The notes beneath the pieces are model-generated. The model searched no databases. It worked only from the letters and a program-made list of their open reading frames with translations, and was not told where the DNA came from. Positions 6,278 through 24,244 of a stretch of 24,244 bases of DNA are shown here, one piece after another (positions within the stretch are counted from its first letter, which is position 1; every line of letters starts with the position of its first letter). A program made the translations under genes and the position numbers. Origin of the DNA: a virus; IMG/VR virus record IMGVR_UViG_3300025674_000380, positions 1 through 24,244 of that record. One strand, given 5' to 3'.

Positions 6278-6451
6278 ATGAAACACGGAATGAAACACGG
6301 AAAAGAAAAAAGAAAAGAAATGATGATGGGTGGATATGACATGAAGCCTAGAGATAAAAAAATGGATGGTGGTAGAATGAAATATGCTAAAGGCGGTTCA
6401 GCTCAACCTATGTATGGTCATGGAGAATGTCCTAAAGCTTCAGCTAACTAA
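6278..6451 (+). CDS. Tiny basic Gly/Met-rich protein (57 residues)
   Basis: Starts at ATG 6278 behind a strong AAGGAG site (AGGAG at 6267-6271, six bases upstream). The product begins with a doubled MKHG, continues with a Lys/Arg/Met-rich stretch, then GGRMKYAKGGSAQPMYGHGE and ends CPKASAN. The KGG...PMYG.GECPKA pattern is one I know from very small proteins next to the capsid gene in marine phage contigs; the function is unknown. The single Cys and His-Gly repeats could bind metal or nucleic acid, but that is a guess. It lies directly after the terminator and two bases before the next tiny gene, so the two are probably translated together. It is small enough to be missed by length-filtered gene finders. 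Confidence 0.75.
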   Translation: MKHGMKHGKEKRKEMMMGGYDMKPRDKKMDGGRMKYAKGGSAQPMYGHGECPKASAN

Positions 6452-13475: not shown

Positions 13476-13823
13476 ATGGCAATTGGATATACTTGGGATG
13501 TTTCAACAGTTGATACTTACCCAACACTAGATGGTAATGCAGACGTTGTTTATAACGTGCATTGGAGATTAACCGCAGAAGATGATGCTAATCAGGATGC
13601 TGATGGTAACAACTGGACAGCTACTGTATACGGAACTCAATCTGTAGACACAGCAGATATCACAGACTTCACAAGCTTTGCAGACTTAACAAGCTCTGAC
13701 GTTCAAGGCTGGGTAGAAGCTGCTATGGGTGAAGAAGCTATAACAGCTTTAAAAGCTGGTCTAGATGCTCAAATCGAAGCTAAAATCAATCCAACATCTG
13801 TTACTAAAACTATAGGAGCATAA
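13476..13823 (+). CDS. Conserved small phage protein of unknown function (115 residues)
   Basis: Starts behind a strong AGGAG site (13464-13468) nineteen bases after the fibre stop. The protein opens with GYTWDVSTVDTYPTLDGNAD and VVYNVHWRLTAEDD, then an Asp/Asn-rich turn, TATVYGTQSVDTADITDFTS and a C-terminal helix with VQGWVEAAMGEEAITALKAG. I recognise this WDV...VVYNVHWRL...YG...F..LT...V..WVE...G pattern from short proteins next to fibre genes of marine phages, including cyanophages; the role is not established to my knowledge. The first half looks like a beta sandwich and the end like a helix. Fibre assembly or attachment would fit the neighbourhood but is inference. The next gene's ribosome site lies in its last codons. 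Confidence 0.85.
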   Translation: MAIGYTWDVSTVDTYPTLDGNADVVYNVHWRLTAEDDANQDADGNNWTATVYGTQSVDTADITDFTSFADLTSSDVQGWVEAAMGEEAITALKAGLDAQIEAKINPTSVTKTIGA

Positions 13824-14091: not shown

Positions 14092-17000
14092 ATGGCAAAA
14101 GGTAAACAAAAGAAAAAAAGAAATAAAAAGTATAGACCTACTTATGTTACAGGTGGTAGAGTAGATATGTCTAAAGGTGGTAGAGTAGGTTTTCAAAGAG
14201 GAGGTCCTAAAAGACCCGGTGAACAAGAACCACCTGTTATGGTAGGTGAACCTGTACAGCCACCTAAAAAAGTAGGAGGACCAGTACCACCACCACAACC
14301 TACACCACAGCCTACACCACAACCTACACCACAGCCTACACCACAGCCTACACCACAGCCACAACCTTCTACTACTGTAGTTGATGTAAAAGATAAAGAT
14401 GACGGTGAAAATAAACAAGGAGTTGCTATAGGAGCTAGAAAAGTTATAAACGGATATTGGCATGTATGGACAGGAGATGATTGGGTCAATACAGGACAAG
14501 CTTATGAAAGTGGTGATGATGACGATAACGGTGATGGTGACGATGGTGGTAATGACGATGGTGGTGATGAAGAAGAAACTGAAGTCGATGAATTTGAAGG
14601 AATGACAGAGTTTCAAAAACAACAATTAGCTGAAAAAGAAAGAGGTCAAAGAGTCATTGAAACAGGTAGAAGTGCAGAACAAATAGCTGCAGGAATAATG
14701 CCTGAAGATATGCCAACAATACCTGAACCTGAAAAGATATCAAGAGAAGATACGGAAATCGCAAAAGAAGATGTACCTCAAATGGGAGAAACTGAAAGAG
14801 GTGTAGCTGTAGATGTAGATGATGTTGGTGCGGAAAAAGTAAAAACAGGAACAGCTAAAACAGCAGAAGCAACAACACAAGTTCAAATAGGTACAGATGC
14901 AGAAGGAAAGCCTATATATTCATCTCCCGGTGTAGCTGTTACAGCTCCTACTACAACTGTATCAGGAACTCAAGTAGCTGTAGATGCTGCAACAGGAACA
15001 CTATCACCAGAAGCACAAGCTTCAGTAGACGAAATAAGACAACTATCTGGAAACGCAGTAGCTGCTCAAATTGAAGATAGTATAATGAATGCTGCTAAAG
15101 CTGAAGATATAGATGGAGTTTTATCTGCAGGTGCATTTGCTCCAGAAGTAACAGGAGCTAAAGTACAAGTAGCTGCAACAGCCGATGCAGAAGCTAAAGA
15201 ACGTGAAGCTATTACAGGACAACCAGCTAATACTGGACAAGCTTCTCAAATTATAGGAACAGTAGGTTATGAAGCTGCACAACAAAGAGCAGTAAAAGGT
15301 GTTGAAGCTAAAGGTGCTGCTGCATCTATGGTAGCTGAAGTTGGTAATATACCACCAGAAATAGCTGCTGCTATTGTAGAAGACCCTGCAACTGTAGAAG
15401 CCCAAGTAGATACTAATCCTGTAGAAGTTAATGCTGCTATTGCTGCATTGCCTACAGAAGCTTTAGTATCTTCACAAATGGAAAATTTATTAGGTGGAAT
15501 GGAAGACGGTGAAGTTCCTATGTGGGCTAAACCTGCTGTCGATGCTATCAATGCAAGAATGGCACAAAGAGGTATGTCAGTTTCTACAGTGGGTAGAGAT
15601 AGTTTATTTAATGCTATTATTCAAAGTGCTATGCCAATAGCTCAAAGCAACGCACAAGCATTACAGACTAGAGCAGCTCAAAATTTAAGTAATGAGCAAC
15701 AAGCTAACTTACAACAAGCTACTCAAGAACAACAGTTAAGAATGCAAAACTTAGCTAATCGTCAAGATGCTGCAAGTCAGACTGCACAAATGTCTCAACA
15801 AATGAGAACAATGCAAAGTCAATTTAGACAACAAGCTGTAATGACTACTGCTGAACAACAGCAACAAACAAGAATGGCTAACTTGCAGAATCAACAACAA
15901 GCTGCATTAGTTAATGCTCAAAACCAACAACAAGCAAACATGGCTAATCTTGGTAATGAGCAACAAGTAAACATGGCAGAGCTTCAAATAGAAGCACAAG
16001 TTCAAGGAGCTAATCAAAGTGCAATTAACCAACAACGTATGTTGGAAATGCAAAATGCTGCTGATTTTTTATCTAAAAATGCTGGATTTAAACAGCAAAT
16101 GGATTTAGCTAATTTATCTAATGACCAGCAAATGAGACTTGCAAACTTGTCAGCTCTTAATCAAGCTGGTTCAGAAAATCTTACTGCTGCTCAACAGACA
16201 GAACTTGCAAATCTTAACAAACAAATGCAGGTTAATATTAAGAATGGTGAGTTAGCTCAATCAATGGGATTAGCTCAACTTAATGTTGACCAACAAAGAG
16301 CTATGCAAAATGCAAACATTGTTGCAAATATGGACATGGCAAACTTTAATGCTGACCAACAAAGAGTATTAGCTAATAGTAAATTTATGCAAACAGTAGC
16401 TATACAGAATATGTCAGCAGAACAACAACTGGTAATGCAACAAGCTACAGCTTTAGCATCACTTGATATGGCTGCTGTAGACCAAAGAACAAAGTTAGCT
16501 ATTAGTAATGCTCAAAACTTTTTACAAATGGATATGGCAAACTTATCAAATGAGCAACAAGCAAGTATGATGAGAAGTCAACAAGAACAACAAAGATTAT
16601 TATCAGACCAGTCTGCTATGAATGCTCAAGCACAGTTTAATGCTACAAGTGAAAATCAAGTTAATCAGTTTATGGCTAACTTAGAACAACAAAATAAACA
16701 GTTTAATGCATCTCAATTAAATGCGATGGAACAGTTTAACGTAGCTAATACAAACGCTGCTGAAGCTAGAAGAGTCGGTAATGAGTTTGAGGTTGAAAAA
16801 CTAGAAGCACAATTACAAAGTGATATGTCTAAATTCAATGCACAACAAGATTTTGCAAAAGAACAATTCAATACACAAAATGAAACAGTTATTGCACAGT
16901 CTAATGTAGAGTGGAGACGTAAAGCTAATACTGCAGACACTGCTGCTTTTAATGCTGTTAATCAACAAAATGCACAGAATGCTTTTGGTCTTACTGCTTC

Positions 17001-17193
17001 TGCTAATAATTTTTTATGGCAAGAGCTTAGAGACGAAGCAGACTTTGATTTTAAACGATGGGATAACGAACAACAACGTAAAGCTTCGTTACTTATAGCT
17101 GCTTTAGGAAACACTGAAGCTGTTAATAGAAAAGATGATTGGGATAATAACGTAGCAAGTATTGCTAGATTATTAGACGGGTGGTTAAGCTAA
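14092..17193 (+). CDS. Large Gln-rich coiled-coil protein, probable internal virion protein
   Basis: A 1033-residue protein in four parts. Residues 1-45 are basic with repeated Gly-Gly-Arg steps (TGGRVDMSKGGRVGFQRGGP). Residues 55-95 are Pro-rich and include five Pro-Thr-Pro-Gln units. Residues 95-175 contain a short WHVWTGDDWVNTG element and an Asp/Gly stretch (SGDDDDNGDGDDGGNDD). Residues 200-500 are Ala/Glu/Thr-rich with little order. From about 520 to 960 the sequence is a long Gln/Asn/Ala helix with recurring NLSNEQQ, ANLxNxQQ and DQQxxLAN steps, typical of an extended coiled coil. The C-terminus (WQELRDEADFDFKRWDNEQQ) is more conventional. I associate this kind of protein with internal-core or ejection proteins of marine podoviruses, but the function is inferred from order and composition; a structural fibre or tape-measure-like role is the alternative. 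It follows the promoter candidate. Confidence 0.7.
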   Translation: MAKGKQKKKRNKKYRPTYVTGGRVDMSKGGRVGFQRGGPKRPGEQEPPVMVGEPVQPPKKVGGPVPPPQPTPQPTPQPTPQPTPQPTPQPQPSTTVVDVKDKDDGENKQGVAIGARKVINGYWHVWTGDDWVNTGQAYESGDDDDNGDGDDGGNDDGGDEEETEVDEFEGMTEFQKQQLAEKERGQRVIETGRSAEQIAAGIMPEDMPTIPEPEKISREDTEIAKEDVPQMGETERGVAVDVDDVGAEKVKTGTAKTAEATTQVQIGTDAEGKPIYSSPGVAVTAPTTTVSGTQVAVDAATGTLSPEAQASVDEIRQLSGNAVAAQIEDSIMNAAKAEDIDGVLSAGAFAPEVTGAKVQVAATADAEAKEREAITGQPANTGQASQIIGTVGYEAAQQRAVKGVEAKGAAASMVAEVGNIPPEIAAAIVEDPATVEAQVDTNPVEVNAAIAALPTEALVSSQMENLLGGMEDGEVPMWAKPAVDAINARMAQRGMSVSTVGRDSLFNAIIQSAMPIAQSNAQALQTRAAQNLSNEQQANLQQATQEQQLRMQNLANRQDAASQTAQMSQQMRTMQSQFRQQAVMTTAEQQQQTRMANLQNQQQAALVNAQNQQQANMANLGNEQQVNMAELQIEAQVQGANQSAINQQRMLEMQNAADFLSKNAGFKQQMDLANLSNDQQMRLANLSALNQAGSENLTAAQQTELANLNKQMQVNIKNGELAQSMGLAQLNVDQQRAMQNANIVANMDMANFNADQQRVLANSKFMQTVAIQNMSAEQQLVMQQATALASLDMAAVDQRTKLAISNAQNFLQMDMANLSNEQQASMMRSQQEQQRLLSDQSAMNAQAQFNATSENQVNQFMANLEQQNKQFNASQLNAMEQFNVANTNAAEARRVGNEFEVEKLEAQLQSDMSKFNAQQDFAKEQFNTQNETVIAQSNVEWRRKANTADTAAFNAVNQQNAQNAFGLTASANNFLWQELRDEADFDFKRWDNEQQRKASLLIAALGNTEAVNRKDDWDNNVASIARLLDGWLS
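14299..14358 (+). repeat. Five 12-bp tandem units encoding PTPQ
   Basis: Five perfect or one-base-different units of CCTACACCACAR, in frame, encode (Pro-Thr-Pro-Gln)x5 in the N-terminal linker of the large Gln-rich protein (residues 70-89). Such units expand or contract easily without breaking the frame. The opposite strand reads as spurious Cys/Gly or Trp/Cys-rich frames because of this repeat. Confidence 0.93.
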
Positions 17194-17203
17194 AGGAAAT
17201 ATT

Positions 17204-18118
17204 ATGGGTAAATTAAGAAAAATTGGAAGAAAAATTAAAAGAGGATTTAAAAAATTAGGTAAAAAACTTAAAAAAGGTTTTGGTAAACTAGCTAAAGCTT
17301 TTGGAAAGTTAGGTCCTTTAGGTTCTATTGCACTTTCTTTTTTACTTCCGGGTATCAGTAATGTTTTAACGGGATGGCTAAGTAATATGGGACCTGTCGG
17401 TCAGTTTATTTTAGATGTTGGTTCTAAAATTCAAACCGGTGCAAACTGGGTTAAAGATGGAGTTGGTAGAGTTTTTAACAGAGTTACAGATGCTATTGAA
17501 TTTGGAATGAATAAAGTAAGCGGTGGTACAGTAGGTAGTGACTTTAGAAACTGGGTAAGTGAACAAACTAAAGGATTTATTGACCCATCTACACAAGGTG
17601 TTGAAGATATTAAAGTTCCGGGAGAAACTAAAATAATTGAAGGTTCAAGTGATTTTAGAAAAGACACTCAAGTTCCTGAAGTTTCAAGTGCTAGTGAAAT
17701 AACTCAACAAGCTAAAGATAGTGTTGCAGTAATGGATAAAAAAATAGAACAAATTAAAGCAGAAGCACCAACTATTAAACCAGATACAAGTATAAAAACA
17801 GCAAAATCTGAAACAACAAAATATCTTGATGAAGTTAAAGGACAATATGCATATATAAAACCTATTACAAAAGTAGGTGAAGGAATACTTCAAGATGAAA
17901 GTGATGCAGCTTATGCTGATTATTTAATGAAACAAGAAAATGCTCAAAGAGCTGGATTATTAGCAGAAGAATCTTTATCTATGGTTCCTACTAATACATA
18001 TGCTTATGCACCTCAAGATTTTATTGACATAAATAATTTAAATAATAATCCAAATGCAATAGCACAAATGACTTCAGGCTATGGTCTTATCTTAGAAGAT
18101 TTTTACGCAACAACATAA
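17204..18118 (+). CDS. Putative ejection protein with cationic membrane-active N-terminus
   Basis: A 304-residue protein of unknown family. The first 35 residues contain 16 Lys/Arg and no acidic residue, spaced as an amphipathic helix (GKLRKIGRKIKRGFKKLGKK, then repeated GK-hydrophobic steps). It runs directly into a hydrophobic Gly-rich stretch (LGSIALSFLLPGISNVLTGW), about residues 39-59. This resembles cationic antimicrobial peptides and similar N-termini I have seen in marine phage virion proteins. The rest is soluble-looking: Gly/Val/Asn repeats, an acidic and Lys-rich middle, then a helical C-terminus with ILQDESDAAYADYLMKQENA. It lies between two internal-virion-type genes, 10 bases from each. 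AAGGA six bases before ATG 17204 supports the start. Inferred role: inner- or outer-membrane penetration during DNA delivery. Confidence 0.72.
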   Translation: MGKLRKIGRKIKRGFKKLGKKLKKGFGKLAKAFGKLGPLGSIALSFLLPGISNVLTGWLSNMGPVGQFILDVGSKIQTGANWVKDGVGRVFNRVTDAIEFGMNKVSGGTVGSDFRNWVSEQTKGFIDPSTQGVEDIKVPGETKIIEGSSDFRKDTQVPEVSSASEITQQAKDSVAVMDKKIEQIKAEAPTIKPDTSIKTAKSETTKYLDEVKGQYAYIKPITKVGEGILQDESDAAYADYLMKQENAQRAGLLAEESLSMVPTNTYAYAPQDFIDINNLNNNPNAIAQMTSGYGLILEDFYATT

Positions 18119-18128
18119 AGGATAAAAC

Positions 18129-18752
18129 ATGGAAAGTAAAGCAATATCACCATTAATAGAGCAAACAGCTTTTGAAGCTCCAATACCGGGACAGTCTTTA
18201 ACTAATAGTCCTGAAAATAATTATGCTTGGGAAAAACCACCTGAAATGGTAGACTTAAATGTAGCTAGACAAAAGATATTTTTAAATTTATTAGAGCCTA
18301 AAAATCTAGAAGAAATTCAAAAGCTTATGATTAATGAAGTTCCAGTAGATGCTATAGCTCAAACAGTATTGGTTGAAGGATTTAGACAAGGTAAATTTAA
18401 TCCTGATTTAGCTTTACAATTATTAGAACCTACTATGTATATGTTATTAGCTATTGCTGAAAAATCTGGTATAGAGCCTACATTAGATGCAGCAGGTGAA
18501 GAAGATGATGAAGACCTTGATGAAGAAGAAGCTGCACAAGTAAGAAAAGATAGTAGCGAAACATTTATGAAAGACGGTGGTCAAAGATTCCAAGATGCTA
18601 GAGTCGCAAGACCTCAACCTGCTTCAGTTGGTCCAGATATAAAAGAACAATTAGATAAATTAGATGTAGAAAAAATGCAACAAAGTATTTTACAAAAACC
18701 TAAACCAGAACTACAATCACAAGAAAGTCTATTAGGTAAAACAGGAGTTTAA
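18129..18752 (+). CDS. Conserved virion-module protein with PIPGQSLT motif (207 residues)
   Basis: Function unknown. The N-terminal segment APIPGQSLTNSPENNYAWEK (about residues 18-37) followed by PPE is a signature I know from proteins in marine phage structural regions. A helical core (about 45-115) carries FLNLLEPKNLEEIQKLM and a hydrophobic helix with ALQLLEPTMYMLLAIAEKSG, which is probably buried rather than membrane-spanning. A very acidic stretch follows (EEDDEDLDEEEAAQV, about 122-137), then a Lys/Gln-rich disordered tail ending in LLGKTGV. AGGA lies seven bases before ATG 18129. It is packed between two putative ejection-protein genes with 10- and 2-base gaps, which suggests it is co-packaged with them or acts as their assembly partner. 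Confidence 0.75.
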   Translation: MESKAISPLIEQTAFEAPIPGQSLTNSPENNYAWEKPPEMVDLNVARQKIFLNLLEPKNLEEIQKLMINEVPVDAIAQTVLVEGFRQGKFNPDLALQLLEPTMYMLLAIAEKSGIEPTLDAAGEEDDEDLDEEEAAQVRKDSSETFMKDGGQRFQDARVARPQPASVGPDIKEQLDKLDVEKMQQSILQKPKPELQSQESLLGKTGV

Positions 18753-18754
18753 AA

Positions 18755-21070
18755 ATGGCTGATAATAGTATGGAAAATTTAATCAGTAACTATGGTGATA
18801 TGAGTATTGAAGAACTCGGAAGTTCTTTATTACAACGACAGTCAGATATAGCAGCAGAGAGAGCTAAACAAGCTAAAAAGAATAGAAGATTTCAACAAGC
18901 TATAGGTTTATTAACAGCAGGTCAAGCCATATTTAAAAATGCTACTCAAAAAAGATTAAAAGAATTAGATGACCTTCAAGCTTTTAATATGCAAGATAAT
19001 GTTGAACAATCTAAACAAATAAAAACTTTAGGTAGAATAGGTGCAAACATGCCAAATCAAGAATGGTTTGCAGAAAGAAAAGATAAAGATGTAAATACTA
19101 TAACTAAAGAAATATTAAATGATGATAGGTATGGTAAAAACTTACAACAAAATTTAGCTCCTGTTATTGATGCAGCTATTAAACAAGGTGTACCTGAAGA
19201 AGAATATGCTATGTTTAAATCAGGAACATCTGAATATGATACAGCTTTTCAACTTGGATTACATAATTTAATTAGTAATTATGTTTCTCCTCATGTTGAT
19301 GCTAAAGGTAATAAAACAGGTAAACGTAATTTTGAAATGTACGAAATTGAATTAAGAAAATTACTCAATGAAAAAGATTTAGATTCTGCAAAATTATTTG
19401 AACAAGCTATTGCTATTACACCGGGACGTTTAAATCAAGCTGAAAAAAGATATTATGCTAGATTAAAAAGTGAATATGCTAACAGAGGATATATTGAAAG
19501 TTTTAAAGATATATTTAAAAAAATAGGTAATAGAGAAGAACAACAAGGACGTTTTAATTTATTTAGAAATGTAGAACAAACCGATTTATATGGTTCTGAT
19601 ATAAATGATATTTTAACAACTTTAAATATTGAAGGTCCTTTAATTACTTCCATAGATAAATCATTAGCTCAATATAGAGGAAGTGCTACTCAAGCTTTAG
19701 TTAGTGCTAAAACAGACCCTGATTTAGTATCAAGAGCTAATACAGCTATAGAAACTTATGGTAGAAATTTAGGTAATAAAAGATTATATAATTCTGACAA
19801 TACTTTAAAAATGTCAATACGTGGCGAAGGAAACTGGAATAATCATATAGAAGATTTTACTGACTCTCAAAAACAAAAATTTGCTGAAGATGTAGCTGGT
19901 TTAGCTAATTCATTTCAAGATGATACAGATTTTGCTTTAGCTGTTTTTAGTTCTACATTAAAAGATAGAGGAGAAGAAGTTACTGATGATATGTTAGCAG
20001 AATTTTATCAAAAAATAACAGGTCCAGATAATGAAACTTATAGGTTAAATATTGCAATTGCTGTAGCAGCTAATGAAGGCTTTGCTGCTGGTGGTGGATT
20101 TTTAGGTAGAAAGCCTGAATACTATAGAGACAGTTTTGATACAGTAGCTCAAAAATATAAATACGATAGATTTAAAGGAAGCATACCTACATTATTAGGA
20201 GAAGGTATTTCTGTACCATCTCAAACTACTACAGGAAATTATCAAGAAGATGCTAGTTATTCTAAAATGGATAAAGACTCTAGAAAGATTGCATTCGATA
20301 ATCAATTAAAATTTATTGAGCAAAGTAAGTTAAGCCCTACTTCTAAAATGAAGTTAATAGAAAATTTATTTGAAAATGTAAGACAACCAGAATTTACAAC
20401 ACCTCAAGAATATTTAGAAGCTTATCCACCTGAAAGTAGAAAGCCACAATATAGATATGTTTATATGTCAGGACCTACTGGAGGATATACAGCTAGGATT
20501 CCTGTTAATATTCCTGAAAAAAAAAATAATGTAGTTGACGATAATCAACTAAGTGATTCTGTTTATAAAAATAAAGCTGTAGGTAAAAAAGTAACTTCAG
20601 AAGCTATAAATGCTATAGTAAATATGGGTTCAGAAAGTGAAAAAGATAAAAAAAATATAATAGGTTTTTTAAATGATACTGCTAATATAGAATCTAGTTA
20701 TGGAAAGCATCGTAATACTTTTACTAATAAATCAGGTGCTAGAGGAATTATGCAAATAGTACCTAGTCAATCTTTAGCAGAATTACAAAGAAGAATAGAT
20801 ATTAATAATCCAACAATGGTAAAATATAATGAAAAATTAAAATCAAATTTTAATATTGATTTAACCACAGTAACTGCAAAAGATTTAGAAATACCATTAG
20901 TTAATGTAGCAGTAGCTAGAGGATATTATATGATTTTTCCAGAACCTATTCCTACTGATAAAGTAAAACAAGCAGAGTATTGGTTGAAAAATTATAACAC
21001 AGGAGATGGGAATGCTACTGTAGATATATATTTAAAAAAGAACGGATACGAAAATTTAATTAAAACTTAA
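18755..21070 (+). CDS. Internal virion protein with C-terminal lytic transglycosylase domain
   Basis: A 771-residue protein that probably cuts peptidoglycan locally when ejected. Residues 1-580 are helical, charged and without a recognised domain, with a Gly-rich EGFAAGGGFLGRKPEYYRDS segment near 440. From about 610 to 765 it shows the soluble-lytic-transglycosylase pattern: catalytic Glu646 in NIESSYGKH, then GARGIMQI (about 661-668), NVAVARGYY with conserved small residues, and the YWLKNYNTGDG motif (about 741-751), equivalent to the AYNxG of the family. In T7 the comparable domain is at the N-terminus of gp16; here it is at the C-terminus of a medium-sized protein. An A10 run at 20517-20526 (codons 588-590) separates body and enzyme. 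The gene starts two bases after the previous stop, with AGGAG in that gene's last codons. Confidence 0.85.
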   Translation: MADNSMENLISNYGDMSIEELGSSLLQRQSDIAAERAKQAKKNRRFQQAIGLLTAGQAIFKNATQKRLKELDDLQAFNMQDNVEQSKQIKTLGRIGANMPNQEWFAERKDKDVNTITKEILNDDRYGKNLQQNLAPVIDAAIKQGVPEEEYAMFKSGTSEYDTAFQLGLHNLISNYVSPHVDAKGNKTGKRNFEMYEIELRKLLNEKDLDSAKLFEQAIAITPGRLNQAEKRYYARLKSEYANRGYIESFKDIFKKIGNREEQQGRFNLFRNVEQTDLYGSDINDILTTLNIEGPLITSIDKSLAQYRGSATQALVSAKTDPDLVSRANTAIETYGRNLGNKRLYNSDNTLKMSIRGEGNWNNHIEDFTDSQKQKFAEDVAGLANSFQDDTDFALAVFSSTLKDRGEEVTDDMLAEFYQKITGPDNETYRLNIAIAVAANEGFAAGGGFLGRKPEYYRDSFDTVAQKYKYDRFKGSIPTLLGEGISVPSQTTTGNYQEDASYSKMDKDSRKIAFDNQLKFIEQSKLSPTSKMKLIENLFENVRQPEFTTPQEYLEAYPPESRKPQYRYVYMSGPTGGYTARIPVNIPEKKNNVVDDNQLSDSVYKNKAVGKKVTSEAINAIVNMGSESEKDKKNIIGFLNDTANIESSYGKHRNTFTNKSGARGIMQIVPSQSLAELQRRIDINNPTMVKYNEKLKSNFNIDLTTVTAKDLEIPLVNVAVARGYYMIFPEPIPTDKVKQAEYWLKNYNTGDGNATVDIYLKKNGYENLIKT
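20517..20526 (+). other. A10 homopolymer at the body/transglycosylase boundary
   Basis: Ten A residues are read Glu-Lys-Lys-Asn. Insertion of one A (or a -1 shift) brings TAA immediately; loss of one A brings TAG two codons later. Slippage in either direction would release a protein of about 590 residues lacking the enzyme domain. A second run of eight A lies at 20648-20655. Alternatively this is simply A-rich coding sequence. Confidence 0.6.
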
Positions 21071-21074
21071 AATA

Positions 21075-24000
21075 ATGAGAATACCCTTTGGTCAACCTAC
21101 AAGTTCAATTGTAGATTTATATAACGAACTAACTCAAGACGAGACTCAAAAGCCTCAAGAAATGCAAGAGGGAGTTAGTCCTCTTTATCAACAAATACCT
21201 GAAGTAAAACCTGATGAAATACAACAGGCTAAAGATTCTATTGTTGGTAATATTCAAAAACAAATTGAAGAAACTGTAACACCTCCAAGTACTGTTAAAA
21301 CTAAAAAAAGTTTAACAGAGTTAGCTAATGATGAAGAGTTTTCCATGAGAGCTGAAAGATTCTTAGAAGGTATTGAAAGTAATGAAAACATATTTGAATA
21401 TCTTAGAGATGCTGAATACAGTTTAAGTGCTGCAGCTACTCGTTCTTTTCAAACAGGTAAATGGACTGACGAACAAAAAGACGATTATGTTTATTTACAG
21501 AATGCATTTAGAAATGCAGACCTTAAAGGCTTTAGAGAACATTTTGGTTTAGTAAAAGATTTAGCAGGTGATTTACTTTTAGACCCATTAAATATTTTAG
21601 CTGCTGTTTTTGCAATACCAACTGCAGGTGCTAGTGTAGCTAGTCGTGCTGCTTTAGGTGCTGCAGCTCAACAAAGCATGAAAGCTTTTACTAAGTCTAA
21701 ATTAAAAAAAGCAATTACTAAAGGTACTGCAAAAGACTTTGCTTTATTCGGAGCTGCTGAAGGAATGGCTTGGGAAGGTCTACATAATTATTTTATGCAA
21801 GACATGAATGTCGATTTAGATTTAATTGATGCTATAGATTTATCTGAACTAAGTGCTTCCGCATTAATCGGTGGTACAATAGGTGCTGGTATTGGTGGAG
21901 CTGTTGGTGTAGGTATGGGTAGAAAATATTCTAGATTAGCAGAAAAAGAATTTAGATATGCTAATGAAGATGCATTTGGATTTGTAGGACCACAACAAAG
22001 AAAAGTAGAATTAGAACAATGGGAGATTGAACAAGCTTCTAAAAATCCTTTAAACTTAGATGAAGAATTTGTAGGACCTACACAAGAATTTGTTGGACCT
22101 TTACCAGAAACAGATTTTTTAAACAGACCATCTTTTTCACAAAGATTTAAAGAACGATTAAAAAAGAAAGTTCCATTTGATACTAGTAAAAGAAAAAGAC
22201 AACATCAATTAAATGTATTAATAGCTAAAACAACAGGTAAAGCTACTACAGAATTTTTAGAATACGCTAAAGACTCACCGGCATTACAAAACTTTTTAAG
22301 AAAAATAAGATACGACTATGATGTTGGTCTTATTACTGAAGGTGAAAGAAGTGTTAAAAAAGCTAAATTAAATGATGGTACTGAAAGTAAATGGTCTTTT
22401 GGTGAATTTGTTGGAAGACAGTTTGGTAAATATCATTATGGATTAAACAAAGCTTTAAATACTTTATATAGAACTGGTTGGTCTGCTCGTATAGTAACAG
22501 AACAAAACGATACTTTATATGCTTTATTATCTGATAAAAATATTGGTATTAAAAGAGGTGAAGGTAAAGTTAGTATAGATACTCTTTTAGAAAGAGGAGA
22601 ATATACTTCAAAAATTAATGACGTACCTAAAGTGTTTAAAATTGATGCTGATGTTGCTGATGCTTATAAAGGTGTTAGAGCATTACTAGATAAGTCTTTT
22701 GATGAAGCACAGGCATTAGGTTTATTTAAAACAGGTACTATTAATAAAGGCGGATTCTTTCCAAGACTTTATAAGTTTGATGTCCTTTCTAAAAAGCCAG
22801 ATGTTTTTGCACAAAAGTTAATTAGAGCAGGACATGCAGACCCTGATAATTCATTAATTGAAATTGATATAGTATTAGAAGATGGAACTAAAACTAAAGG
22901 TACTCCTGCTGATGCTAAGACTATGGATGATGAAATATTCCAGTTAAGTAAAAAATATCAAGTAACTAGTTTTGAGGACTTAGCTAAAAAAGAATTAGAC
23001 GTAGATGTAGCTGCTGGAAGAAGAACAACTTATACTCAAAAAGAATTAGAAACTACAGCTAAAGAATTAAAAGCTAAAGAAATTGTTCAAGGAATGATTG
23101 ATGAAAGATATACTCCTTATGAATTAAGAAAAGCAGGTGCTAATAATTCTTTAGGATTTTTTCAAGCTAGAAGATTTAATAATATAAAAGATAGTGATAT
23201 TGCAGAATTTTTAGAAACAGATGTTCAACAAGTATTAGAAAATTATTTTACTAATATGGCACAATCTCAAGGACGTAAAAAATATTTTGGAAATACTATA
23301 AGAGAATTTGAAACTGAAAGACAATTAATAAAAAATGAGTTAATGGAATCAGCTTTAAAAAGAGGTTTAAATAAAACAGAAGCTAGACAAGAAGCTGAAG
23401 AAATTGCAAAGAATATAGGAGATGTATTTCAAAAAGTTACTGGATTAGAAACTTATCAAAATAGTGTATTTAGAAATACAAAAATGGGTAGAGGATTTAG
23501 TGATGCTACTAAGTTAATACAACAGATGGCTCATTTACCTTTTGCAACTATTTCTAGTATAACAGAACCATTAATTTTATTAAGTCGTGCAAATCCCGGA
23601 GATGTAAAAGAAACTGCAAGAAGTATAGGTACAAGTATTGTATCAGAAGGTAAAAATACTTTTAAAAGATTATTTCAAAATCTTGAAAGAAGTAGTTTTG
23701 GTGGTTTAAAAAAAGGTAAAAAGATAAAAGGTTTTGAAGATGTTAATGATGAAACATGGGCAGAGCTTTATCAAACTGGATTAGCTTTAGAACAAGCAGT
23801 ACAAGAAAGGATTGAAGGATTAGCTGGTGAAGCATTAGGTAGTAAAAAACTTAGAAGCCTTCAACAAATGTTTTTTAAAACAAACTTACTTACACAATGG
23901 ACAAAAGCTGTTCAACTTGCTGCATTTACTACAGGTAAAAGATTAATAAAACAAAATGCAGAACAATTATATTATGGTAAAACTTTAGTTGGTAGAAAAT

Positions 24001-24244
24001 TAACTGATAAAAATAAAGATTATTTAATAAAACAATTAAATGAATTAGGTGTTGATGAAACTGAAGCTTTAAAATGGTATAAAGGTTCGTTAGATAAAAA
24101 CGGTAAATACGATATAAATAAAGCTAGAGGTATGGATGATAAAGGACAAATTATCCAAGACCAATACGGTAATGTAACTTTTAATGCTAATTTTTATAGT
24201 AAAGATTACTTAAATGCTGCAAATAGATTTACTAAAGAAATTAT
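21075..24244 (+). CDS. Giant internal virion / DNA-ejection protein, 3' end missing
   Basis: The frame is open from ATG 21075 to the window edge without a stop: at least 1056 residues. The start lies four bases after the previous stop and has no clear Shine-Dalgarno, so coupling is likely. After a disordered N-terminus (1-85) comes a helical domain; two possible membrane segments follow: LLLDPLNILAAVFAIP (about 167-185) and a glycine zipper, ALIGGTIGAGIGGAVGVGMG (about 262-281). A doubled EFVGPTQEFVGP-like motif is near 330. The remainder is Lys/Glu-rich and helical, with GGFFPRLYKF near 560 and MAHLPFATISSITEPLILLS near 818. Size, last place in the module and zipper segments match the largest ejection proteins of podoviruses (T7 gp16-like role). 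No enzyme motif is visible in this part. The specific function is inferred from context. Confidence 0.8.
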   Translation, partial: MRIPFGQPTSSIVDLYNELTQDETQKPQEMQEGVSPLYQQIPEVKPDEIQQAKDSIVGNIQKQIEETVTPPSTVKTKKSLTELANDEEFSMRAERFLEGIESNENIFEYLRDAEYSLSAAATRSFQTGKWTDEQKDDYVYLQNAFRNADLKGFREHFGLVKDLAGDLLLDPLNILAAVFAIPTAGASVASRAALGAAAQQSMKAFTKSKLKKAITKGTAKDFALFGAAEGMAWEGLHNYFMQDMNVDLDLIDAIDLSELSASALIGGTIGAGIGGAVGVGMGRKYSRLAEKEFRYANEDAFGFVGPQQRKVELEQWEIEQASKNPLNLDEEFVGPTQEFVGPLPETDFLNRPSFSQRFKERLKKKVPFDTSKRKRQHQLNVLIAKTTGKATTEFLEYAKDSPALQNFLRKIRYDYDVGLITEGERSVKKAKLNDGTESKWSFGEFVGRQFGKYHYGLNKALNTLYRTGWSARIVTEQNDTLYALLSDKNIGIKRGEGKVSIDTLLERGEYTSKINDVPKVFKIDADVADAYKGVRALLDKSFDEAQALGLFKTGTINKGGFFPRLYKFDVLSKKPDVFAQKLIRAGHADPDNSLIEIDIVLEDGTKTKGTPADAKTMDDEIFQLSKKYQVTSFEDLAKKELDVDVAAGRRTTYTQKELETTAKELKAKEIVQGMIDERYTPYELRKAGANNSLGFFQARRFNNIKDSDIAEFLETDVQQVLENYFTNMAQSQGRKKYFGNTIREFETERQLIKNELMESALKRGLNKTEARQEAEEIAKNIGDVFQKVTGLETYQNSVFRNTKMGRGFSDATKLIQQMAHLPFATISSITEPLILLSRANPGDVKETARSIGTSIVSEGKNTFKRLFQNLERSSFGGLKKGKKIKGFEDVNDETWAELYQTGLALEQAVQERIEGLAGEALGSKKLRSLQQMFFKTNLLTQWTKAVQLAAFTTGKRLIKQNAEQLYYGKTLVGRKLTDKNKDYLIKQLNELGVDETEALKWYKGSLDKNGKYDINKARGMDDKGQIIQDQYGNVTFNANFYSKDYLNAANRFTKEI

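What the first reader, a model, noticed from the sequence alone, without database searches (positions are those of the whole stretch)
17204..17400. Antimicrobial-peptide-like head on a virion-module protein
The first 35 residues carry 16 positive charges and no negative ones in an amphipathic spacing, followed directly by a hydrophobic Gly/Leu stretch. Embedded among ejection genes and next to a peptidoglycan-cutting protein, this is a plausible membrane-piercing device for genome delivery, a role not established for this family as far as I know.
Basis: partly seen in the sequence, partly recalled or inferred. Interest (0 to 1): 0.52.

Follow-up and report, generated by a model that had tools for sequence, protein, structure and literature searches.

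The report
Phage protein with peptide-antibiotic-like head
An ocean phage carries a protein whose front end is a strongly positive, two-faced helix running into a greasy stretch; the same head is kept in dozens of related marine phages, and in some of them the gene is paired with a fat-attaching enzyme otherwise known for arming bacterial toxins, which makes it a good candidate membrane breacher for DNA delivery.

Summary
The window is an IMG/VR virus record related to HMO-2011-type podophages. Gene B (17204-18118, 304 aa) begins with 16 K/R and no D/E in residues 2-36, on a near-ideal amphipathic helix (muH 0.69, z 5.8). A nearly charge-free Gly/Leu segment follows.

It is a family trait. In 70 of 70 related viral loci holding both flanking genes A and C, the gene between them has a +9 to +16 head. 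In 62 distinct heads aligned on the hydrophobic motif, K/R and hydrophobic positions alternate in one fixed register. The equally K/R-rich head of gene A is not amphipathic, which argues against charge alone.

Best reading: B is a T7-gp14-like ejected protein whose head binds and perturbs the host envelope (confidence 0.55; no virion or membrane data). A new clue: in HTVC115P and 16 viral contigs an HlyC-family lysine acyltransferase (ApxC fold, Z 15.9) lies directly upstream of, and overlaps, B. No HlyC was found in the window's own group.

Against: 8 of 12 cultured relatives inspected lack B. The lytic-domain gene is two genes away and its SLT match is weak in the window. DNA or partner binding is not excluded.

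The parts
17204..18118 (+). Gene B, 304 aa, the protein of the finding
   Evidence: ORF; relatives in viral contigs
17194..17199 (+). AGGAAA, ribosome-binding-like site of gene B
   Evidence: sequence
17204..17308 (+). Residues 1-35: cationic amphipathic head (16 K/R, no D/E)
   Evidence: helix 3-34 in the AlphaFold2 model
17309..17383 (+). Residues 36-60: hydrophobic Gly/Leu core with GxxG (LGPLGSIALSFLLPG...)
   Evidence: GxxG in 62 of 62 distinct heads; hydropathy
14092..17193 (+). Gene A, Q/N-rich 1033-aa neighbour with a K/R-rich but non-amphipathic head
   Evidence: syntenic upstream gene in 70 of 80 loci
18129..18752 (+). Gene C, 207 aa, acidic PIPGxSLT protein
18755..21070 (+). Gene D, 771 aa, C-terminal SLT-like lytic domain (gp15-sized)
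21075..24242 (+). Gene E, at least 1056 aa, cut by the end of the record (gp16-sized)
   Evidence: phrog_7348 match

Best explanation
Gene B encodes an internal (ejected) virion protein whose head is a membrane-active device. Steps: (1) a 35-residue helix with one Lys/Arg face and one Leu/Ile/Phe face docks onto anionic envelope lipid or LPS; (2) the charge-poor LGPLGSIALSFLLPG segment that follows inserts into the bilayer; (3) several copies open or line a passage, in the manner of T7 gp14; (4) the D protein (lytic domain) and the giant E protein then cross the wall and inner membrane. In a related subgroup an HlyC-type enzyme encoded just before B may fatty-acylate B and so strengthen insertion. 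Shown here: the head's composition, its amphipathic register and conservation, its syntenic place, and the HlyC neighbour in some relatives. Inferred: virion location, ejection, membrane contact, pore formation, acylation.
For: Amphipathic register conserved relative to the hydrophobic core in 62 distinct heads, GxxG in 62 of 62. 42 of 46 non-redundant heads amphipathic at p<0.01, against 3 of 34 gene-A heads (equally K/R-rich, same genomes) at p<0.05. 70 of 70 loci with A and C have the cationic gene between them. The cassette resembles T7 gp14/15/16 in size and order and holds a lytic-domain protein. HlyC-family enzyme directly upstream of and overlapping B in 16 of 80 HlyC loci and in HTVC115P; HlyC relatives modify membrane-acting or LPS-binding proteins (passages of PMC8510554).
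Against: No virion proteome or membrane assay. 8 of 12 cultured relatives inspected have no B and yet deliver DNA. The hydrophobic core stays below the usual transmembrane threshold in 56 of 80 members. No sequence or fold link to gp14 was found. No HlyC match in the window or in the records of L002-L005.
Confidence: 0.55

Rival explanations
1. The head is a polyanion clamp: it binds packaged DNA (or escorts the leading DNA end) inside the capsid, and the hydrophobic part only packs the protein.
For: Very high K/R density and no acids; a virion-interior location is likely for this cassette by analogy with T7.
Against: DNA binding alone needs no conserved hydrophobic face; hydrophobic positions never carry K/R in 62 heads, and the gene-A heads show what K/R richness without amphipathicity looks like.
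Confidence: 0.18
2. The head is an assembly handle: an amphipathic helix that docks B onto an acidic partner (gene C, portal or another core protein) in the procapsid.
For: A 3-4 spaced hydrophobic stripe also fits a helix-helix contact; C is acidic (net charge median -22.5 in 52 representatives).
Against: C is about as acidic in the 8 phages without B (maximum acidity p 0.20, net charge p 0.51), so no sign of a charge pair.
Confidence: 0.15
3. B is not a virion part but a late protein that permeabilises the host membrane at lysis, like a holin or a phage antimicrobial peptide.
For: Cationic amphipathic plus hydrophobic anatomy would also suit this.
Against: Position is fixed inside the A-C-D-E cassette; B is long (257-459 aa among 46 representatives) with a net negative remainder in 42 of 46.
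Confidence: 0.07

Closest known systems
T7 gp14 / P22 gp7 class of small ejection proteins (outer-membrane pore)
   Same: Small hydrophobic protein encoded just before a gp15-sized and a gp16-sized gene; proposed first contact with the envelope (T7 facts from passages of PMC8954989)
   Different: No sequence or fold match found; [quoted passage not shown]
Cationic amphipathic antimicrobial peptides (magainin and cecropin type; resemblance recalled, not tested)
   Same: Lys-rich helix with one hydrophobic face and high moment
   Different: Part of a 304-aa phage cassette protein, not a secreted free peptide; no activity data
HlyC / RTX protoxin pairs and CdiC / CdiA
   Same: In HTVC115P-type relatives an HlyC-family gene (PF02794, 58-66 bits in the 4 B-linked copies tested; cut-off 25) is directly upstream of B; Gly-Lys motifs occur in all 14 of those heads (read), and HlyA's acylated lysines lie in Gly-Lys motifs (passages of PMC8510554)
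   Different: The neighbour is a phage cassette protein, not a secreted toxin; acylation untested; no HlyC match in the window's record or those of L002-L005

Membership tests
T7 gp14-like ejection protein | sequence homology to gp14 families | tested here: inconclusive
   No Pfam match; only weak PHROG matches (E 0.0027 to unknown function, E 0.089 to a baseplate protein) for B; families this diverged can be missed
T7 gp14-like ejection protein | gene order small - gp15-sized - gp16-sized in the late operon | tested here: met
   B/C - D (771 aa) - E (at least 1056 aa); C could equally be the gp14 counterpart
T7 gp14-like ejection protein | present in virions, ejected first, pore-forming | not testable with these tools
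   needs virion mass spectrometry and membrane assays
Cationic amphipathic membrane-active helix | net positive charge with significant helical amphipathicity | tested here: met
   16 K/R, 0 D/E, muH 0.69, z 5.8
Cationic amphipathic membrane-active helix | membrane perturbation | not testable with these tools
   needs vesicle or cell assays
HlyC (TAAT) acyltransferase, the neighbour of B in HTVC115P-type relatives (not in the window) | PF02794 over cut-off and TAAT fold | tested here: met
   58.2-66.5 bits of 25 in 4 of 4 B-linked copies tested; ApxC 4whn TM 0.71, Z 15.9 at 136 aligned residues, rmsd 3.4
HlyC (TAAT) acyltransferase, the neighbour of B in HTVC115P-type relatives (not in the window) | catalytic His/Asp dyad | tested here: inconclusive
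   Asp at the WxID site in 16 of 16 B-linked copies, aligned by phmmer with an ApxC Asp in HTVC115P gp46 (that it is the catalytic one is inferred). A His equivalent could not be fixed; His at residue 9 is Asn in L016

The most novel reading that the evidence does not exclude
Some marine phages lipidate their own DNA-delivery protein: a phage-encoded HlyC-type enzyme fatty-acylates lysines (or the exposed N-terminal glycine) of B's long cationic head during assembly, so that the ejected protein inserts into the host envelope, while relatives such as the window's phage rely on the amphipathic head alone. Phage 'hlyC' genes in these contexts would then be virion-maturation genes rather than virulence genes.
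Probability: 0.3. Interest if true: 0.82.

Novelty: new variant of a known kind. Interest (0 to 1): 0.6.

Why it matters
How short-tailed phages first breach the envelope is known in detail for few models, and the marine groups are little explored. A conserved, separable 35-residue head makes the question directly testable with a synthetic peptide and vesicles. The HlyC pairing suggests a kind of phage virion modification that I did not find described. It also offers an alternative reading of 'hlyC' in marine phage genomes, which one survey counted as a virulence gene ('hemolysin C, a toxin'; passages of PMC7003362).

Tried and rejected
Charge-partner idea (acidic C present only with B): not supported. 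Fold of B: Foldseek in the viral library gave nothing below E 0.24. A profile search of PDB sequences gave only weak matches, best E 0.0079 (haemagglutinin HA2, profile positions 94-186, outside the head), judged chance. Direct tblastn of B against 50,697 phage records: no match; relatives had to be reached through gene C and viral contigs. Gene E likewise had no phage-record match; gene D matched 11 records in its C-terminal domain only. HlyC as B's exclusive partner: rejected. HTVC103P/104P keep HlyC in the early region, away from B, and 54 of the 80 HlyC loci have it before a tail-hub (J-like) gene, 50 of these with Glu for the Asp. Gene C scan of bacterial genomes: 2 loci only, one of them (L224, Maricaulis MAG) with a B-like ORF with a cationic head. 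Literature: searches for phage acyltransferase, HlyC, cationic amphipathic and lipidated-virion terms listed no paper that I recognised as describing B or acylation of a tailed-phage protein; open-licence PMC papers only, and most listed papers were not opened. The listings served to place the phage group; PMC9038755 (passages) has no hit for 'acyltransferase' or 'internal'; passages of PMC13320782 concern a T7-like Vibrio phage.

Full report
WHAT THE WINDOW IS. The window is a 24,244-base virus record. Its coat protein is 59% identical to that of Pelagibacter phage HTVC115P and 43% to that of Puniceispirillum phage HMO-2011, which places it near HMO-2011-type podophages. The finding lies in gene B, in the order A (14092-17193, Q/N-rich), B (17204-18118), C (18129-18752, PIPGxSLT protein), D (18755-21070, C-terminal SLT-like lytic domain), E (21075 to the end, at least 1056 aa).

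THE OBSERVATION. Residues 2-36 hold 16 K/R and no D/E. Their hydrophobic moment is 0.69 at 100 degrees, z 5.8, not reached in 20,000 shuffles. None of the 13 other plus-strand ORFs of at least 100 aa in the window exceeds 8 K/R in an acid-free 35-residue stretch, and the maximum over 200 shuffles of the proteome is 11. Residues 37-90 are nearly charge-free (3 K/R, 2 D/E). AlphaFold2 with 60 sequences gives one helix at residues 3-34 (mean pLDDT by tens 86, 87, 70, 60), then short helices; the whole model is poor (pLDDT 67.5, pTM 0.31) and says nothing on the fold of the rest.

A FAMILY TRAIT. No phage record matched B directly, so relatives were reached in two ways: by B itself in viral contigs and, independently of B, through gene C (best 80 of 188 matches). 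Of those 80 loci, 70 hold both A and C; 10 do not show A. In all 70 an ORF between A and C starts with net charge +9 or more in its first 40 residues: 67 were measured (minimum +9, median +14, maximum +16), and L047, L048 and L079 (+14, +15, +14) appear. Among 46 non-redundant members 39 have no acid in the first 40 residues. Of 231 other ORFs of at least 150 aa in these loci 17 reach +10, and by position and sequence they look like gene A.

NOT JUST CHARGE. 42 of 46 non-redundant B heads are amphipathic at p<0.01; of 34 gene-A heads of the same genomes, similarly K/R-rich (median 11 in 30 residues), 3 reach p<0.05. Aligned on the hydrophobic core, 62 distinct heads without adjacent HlyC show one register: positions -25, -18, -14, -11, -7 and 0 never carry K/R; positions -27, -20, -16 and -1 carry K/R in 92, 97, 100 and 97%; the two glycines of GxxG are in 62 of 62 (members whose core does not fit the search pattern are not in this set, for example 6 of the 60 representatives without adjacent HlyC). 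Between close relatives the head keeps its charge: window against L002 differs in 19 of the first 60 codons, 10 synonymous and 9 not, 3 of the latter K/R swaps. Against L003 the figures are 3 synonymous and 10 non-synonymous (2 K/R swaps), so codon counts alone do not prove purifying selection. Beyond the first 110 or so residues distant members hardly align: the head plus core is the conserved element.

WHERE IT IS MISSING. Of the 22 phage records with gene C I inspected 12 phages. B is present in HTVC115P, HTVC103P, HTVC104P and Pseudoalteromonas phage Slicky01. Between A and C only other, non-cationic proteins are found, or no clear gene, in HTVC033P, HMO-2011, CHOED, MQM1, phiM6, CRP-2, CRP-3 and RHph_I3_11. 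So B is a lineage trait, not a universal need.

THE ENZYME NEXT DOOR. In HTVC115P the gene between A and B (gp46) is annotated toxin-activating lysine-acyltransferase and matches Pfam HlyC at 58.2 bits, cut-off 25. It overlaps the start of B. A scan of viral contigs for HlyC relatives (best 80 of 180) gave 16 contigs in which HlyC is directly upstream of B, overlapping it by 8-17 nt, 54 in which it is directly upstream of a tail-hub (J-like) gene, and 10 others. An Asp at the WxID site is present in 16 of 16 B-linked copies, while 50 of the 54 J-linked copies have Glu. By fold the B-linked enzyme is ApxC-like (model pLDDT 87; TM 0.71; Z 15.9 with 136 residues aligned at rmsd 3.4, next entry Z 10.2). 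The catalytic His could not be placed and is the weak point. B heads next to HlyC are longer before the core (56-67 residues in 9 representatives) than those without it (33-60 in 54); all 9 start with MG, as do 49 of 60 of the others, so the MG start is not specific. HlyC relatives outside RTX toxins are known: CdiC acylates CdiA at a lysine and aids target-cell recognition (passages of PMC8510554). The window's record, the records of L002-L005 and those of HTVC033P, Slicky01 and HMO-2011 have no HlyC match (3 of 11 records searched have one), and HTVC103P/104P carry theirs in the early region away from B; some of these records are fragments. Acylation can therefore only be an add-on.

MECHANISM. 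I read B as an ejected protein that works like T7 gp14, which leaves first, goes to the outer membrane and forms pores in vitro (passages of PMC8954989). The amphipathic head would bind the anionic envelope surface and the hydrophobic core would insert. Confidence 0.55. Shown: anatomy, conservation, register, synteny, neighbour enzyme in some relatives. Inferred: virion presence, ejection, membrane insertion, pore, acylation. Rivals are DNA clamping (0.18), an assembly handle (0.15) and a late lysis aid (0.07). The handle idea predicted that C's acidity would track B, which it does not (p 0.20 and 0.51).

AGAINST THE READING. No virion or membrane data. The hydrophobic segment is below the usual transmembrane threshold (recalled value 1.6) in 56 of 80 members. 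The head could serve DNA or partner binding. The lytic protein is two genes away and weakly matched in the window.

NOVELTY. Membrane-active ejection proteins are a known kind; this family with its antimicrobial-peptide-like head, and the HlyC pairing, were not found described in the searches made (open-licence papers only, mostly listings). I file it as a new variant of a known kind, not as a member of the gp14 family, for which no sequence link was found.

Noticed in passing
L024 8986-9372, L025 8905-9333, L026 8929-9336; 54 of 80 loci: In HTVC112P-, HTVC026P- and HTVC111P-type pelagiphages an HlyC-family gene lies directly upstream of a tail-hub (J-like) gene whose product starts MGG/MGS plus a hydrophobic segment; most copies have Glu where B-linked ones have Asp.
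   Followed up: partly
window 20555-21067 and L003 6559-7078: Gene D of the window and of relative L003 are nearly identical up to about residue 590 and then carry different lytic-like C-terminal domains, which looks like a domain swap.
   Followed up: no
window 14092-14200 and 6278-6451: Gene A starts with a K/R-rich, non-amphipathic tail followed by repeated GGRV...KGG-type motifs; a similar motif occurs in the 57-aa ORF at 6278. Role unknown.
   Followed up: no
L027 5911-6360 (HTVC104P): HTVC103P and HTVC104P carry an HlyC-family gene in the early region near the ssDNA-binding protein and primase genes, away from B.
   Followed up: partly
window 13476-13823: 115-aa protein matching DUF7936 (PF25590, E 9.1e-25), between the long tail-fibre-like gene and the cassette.
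   Followed up: no
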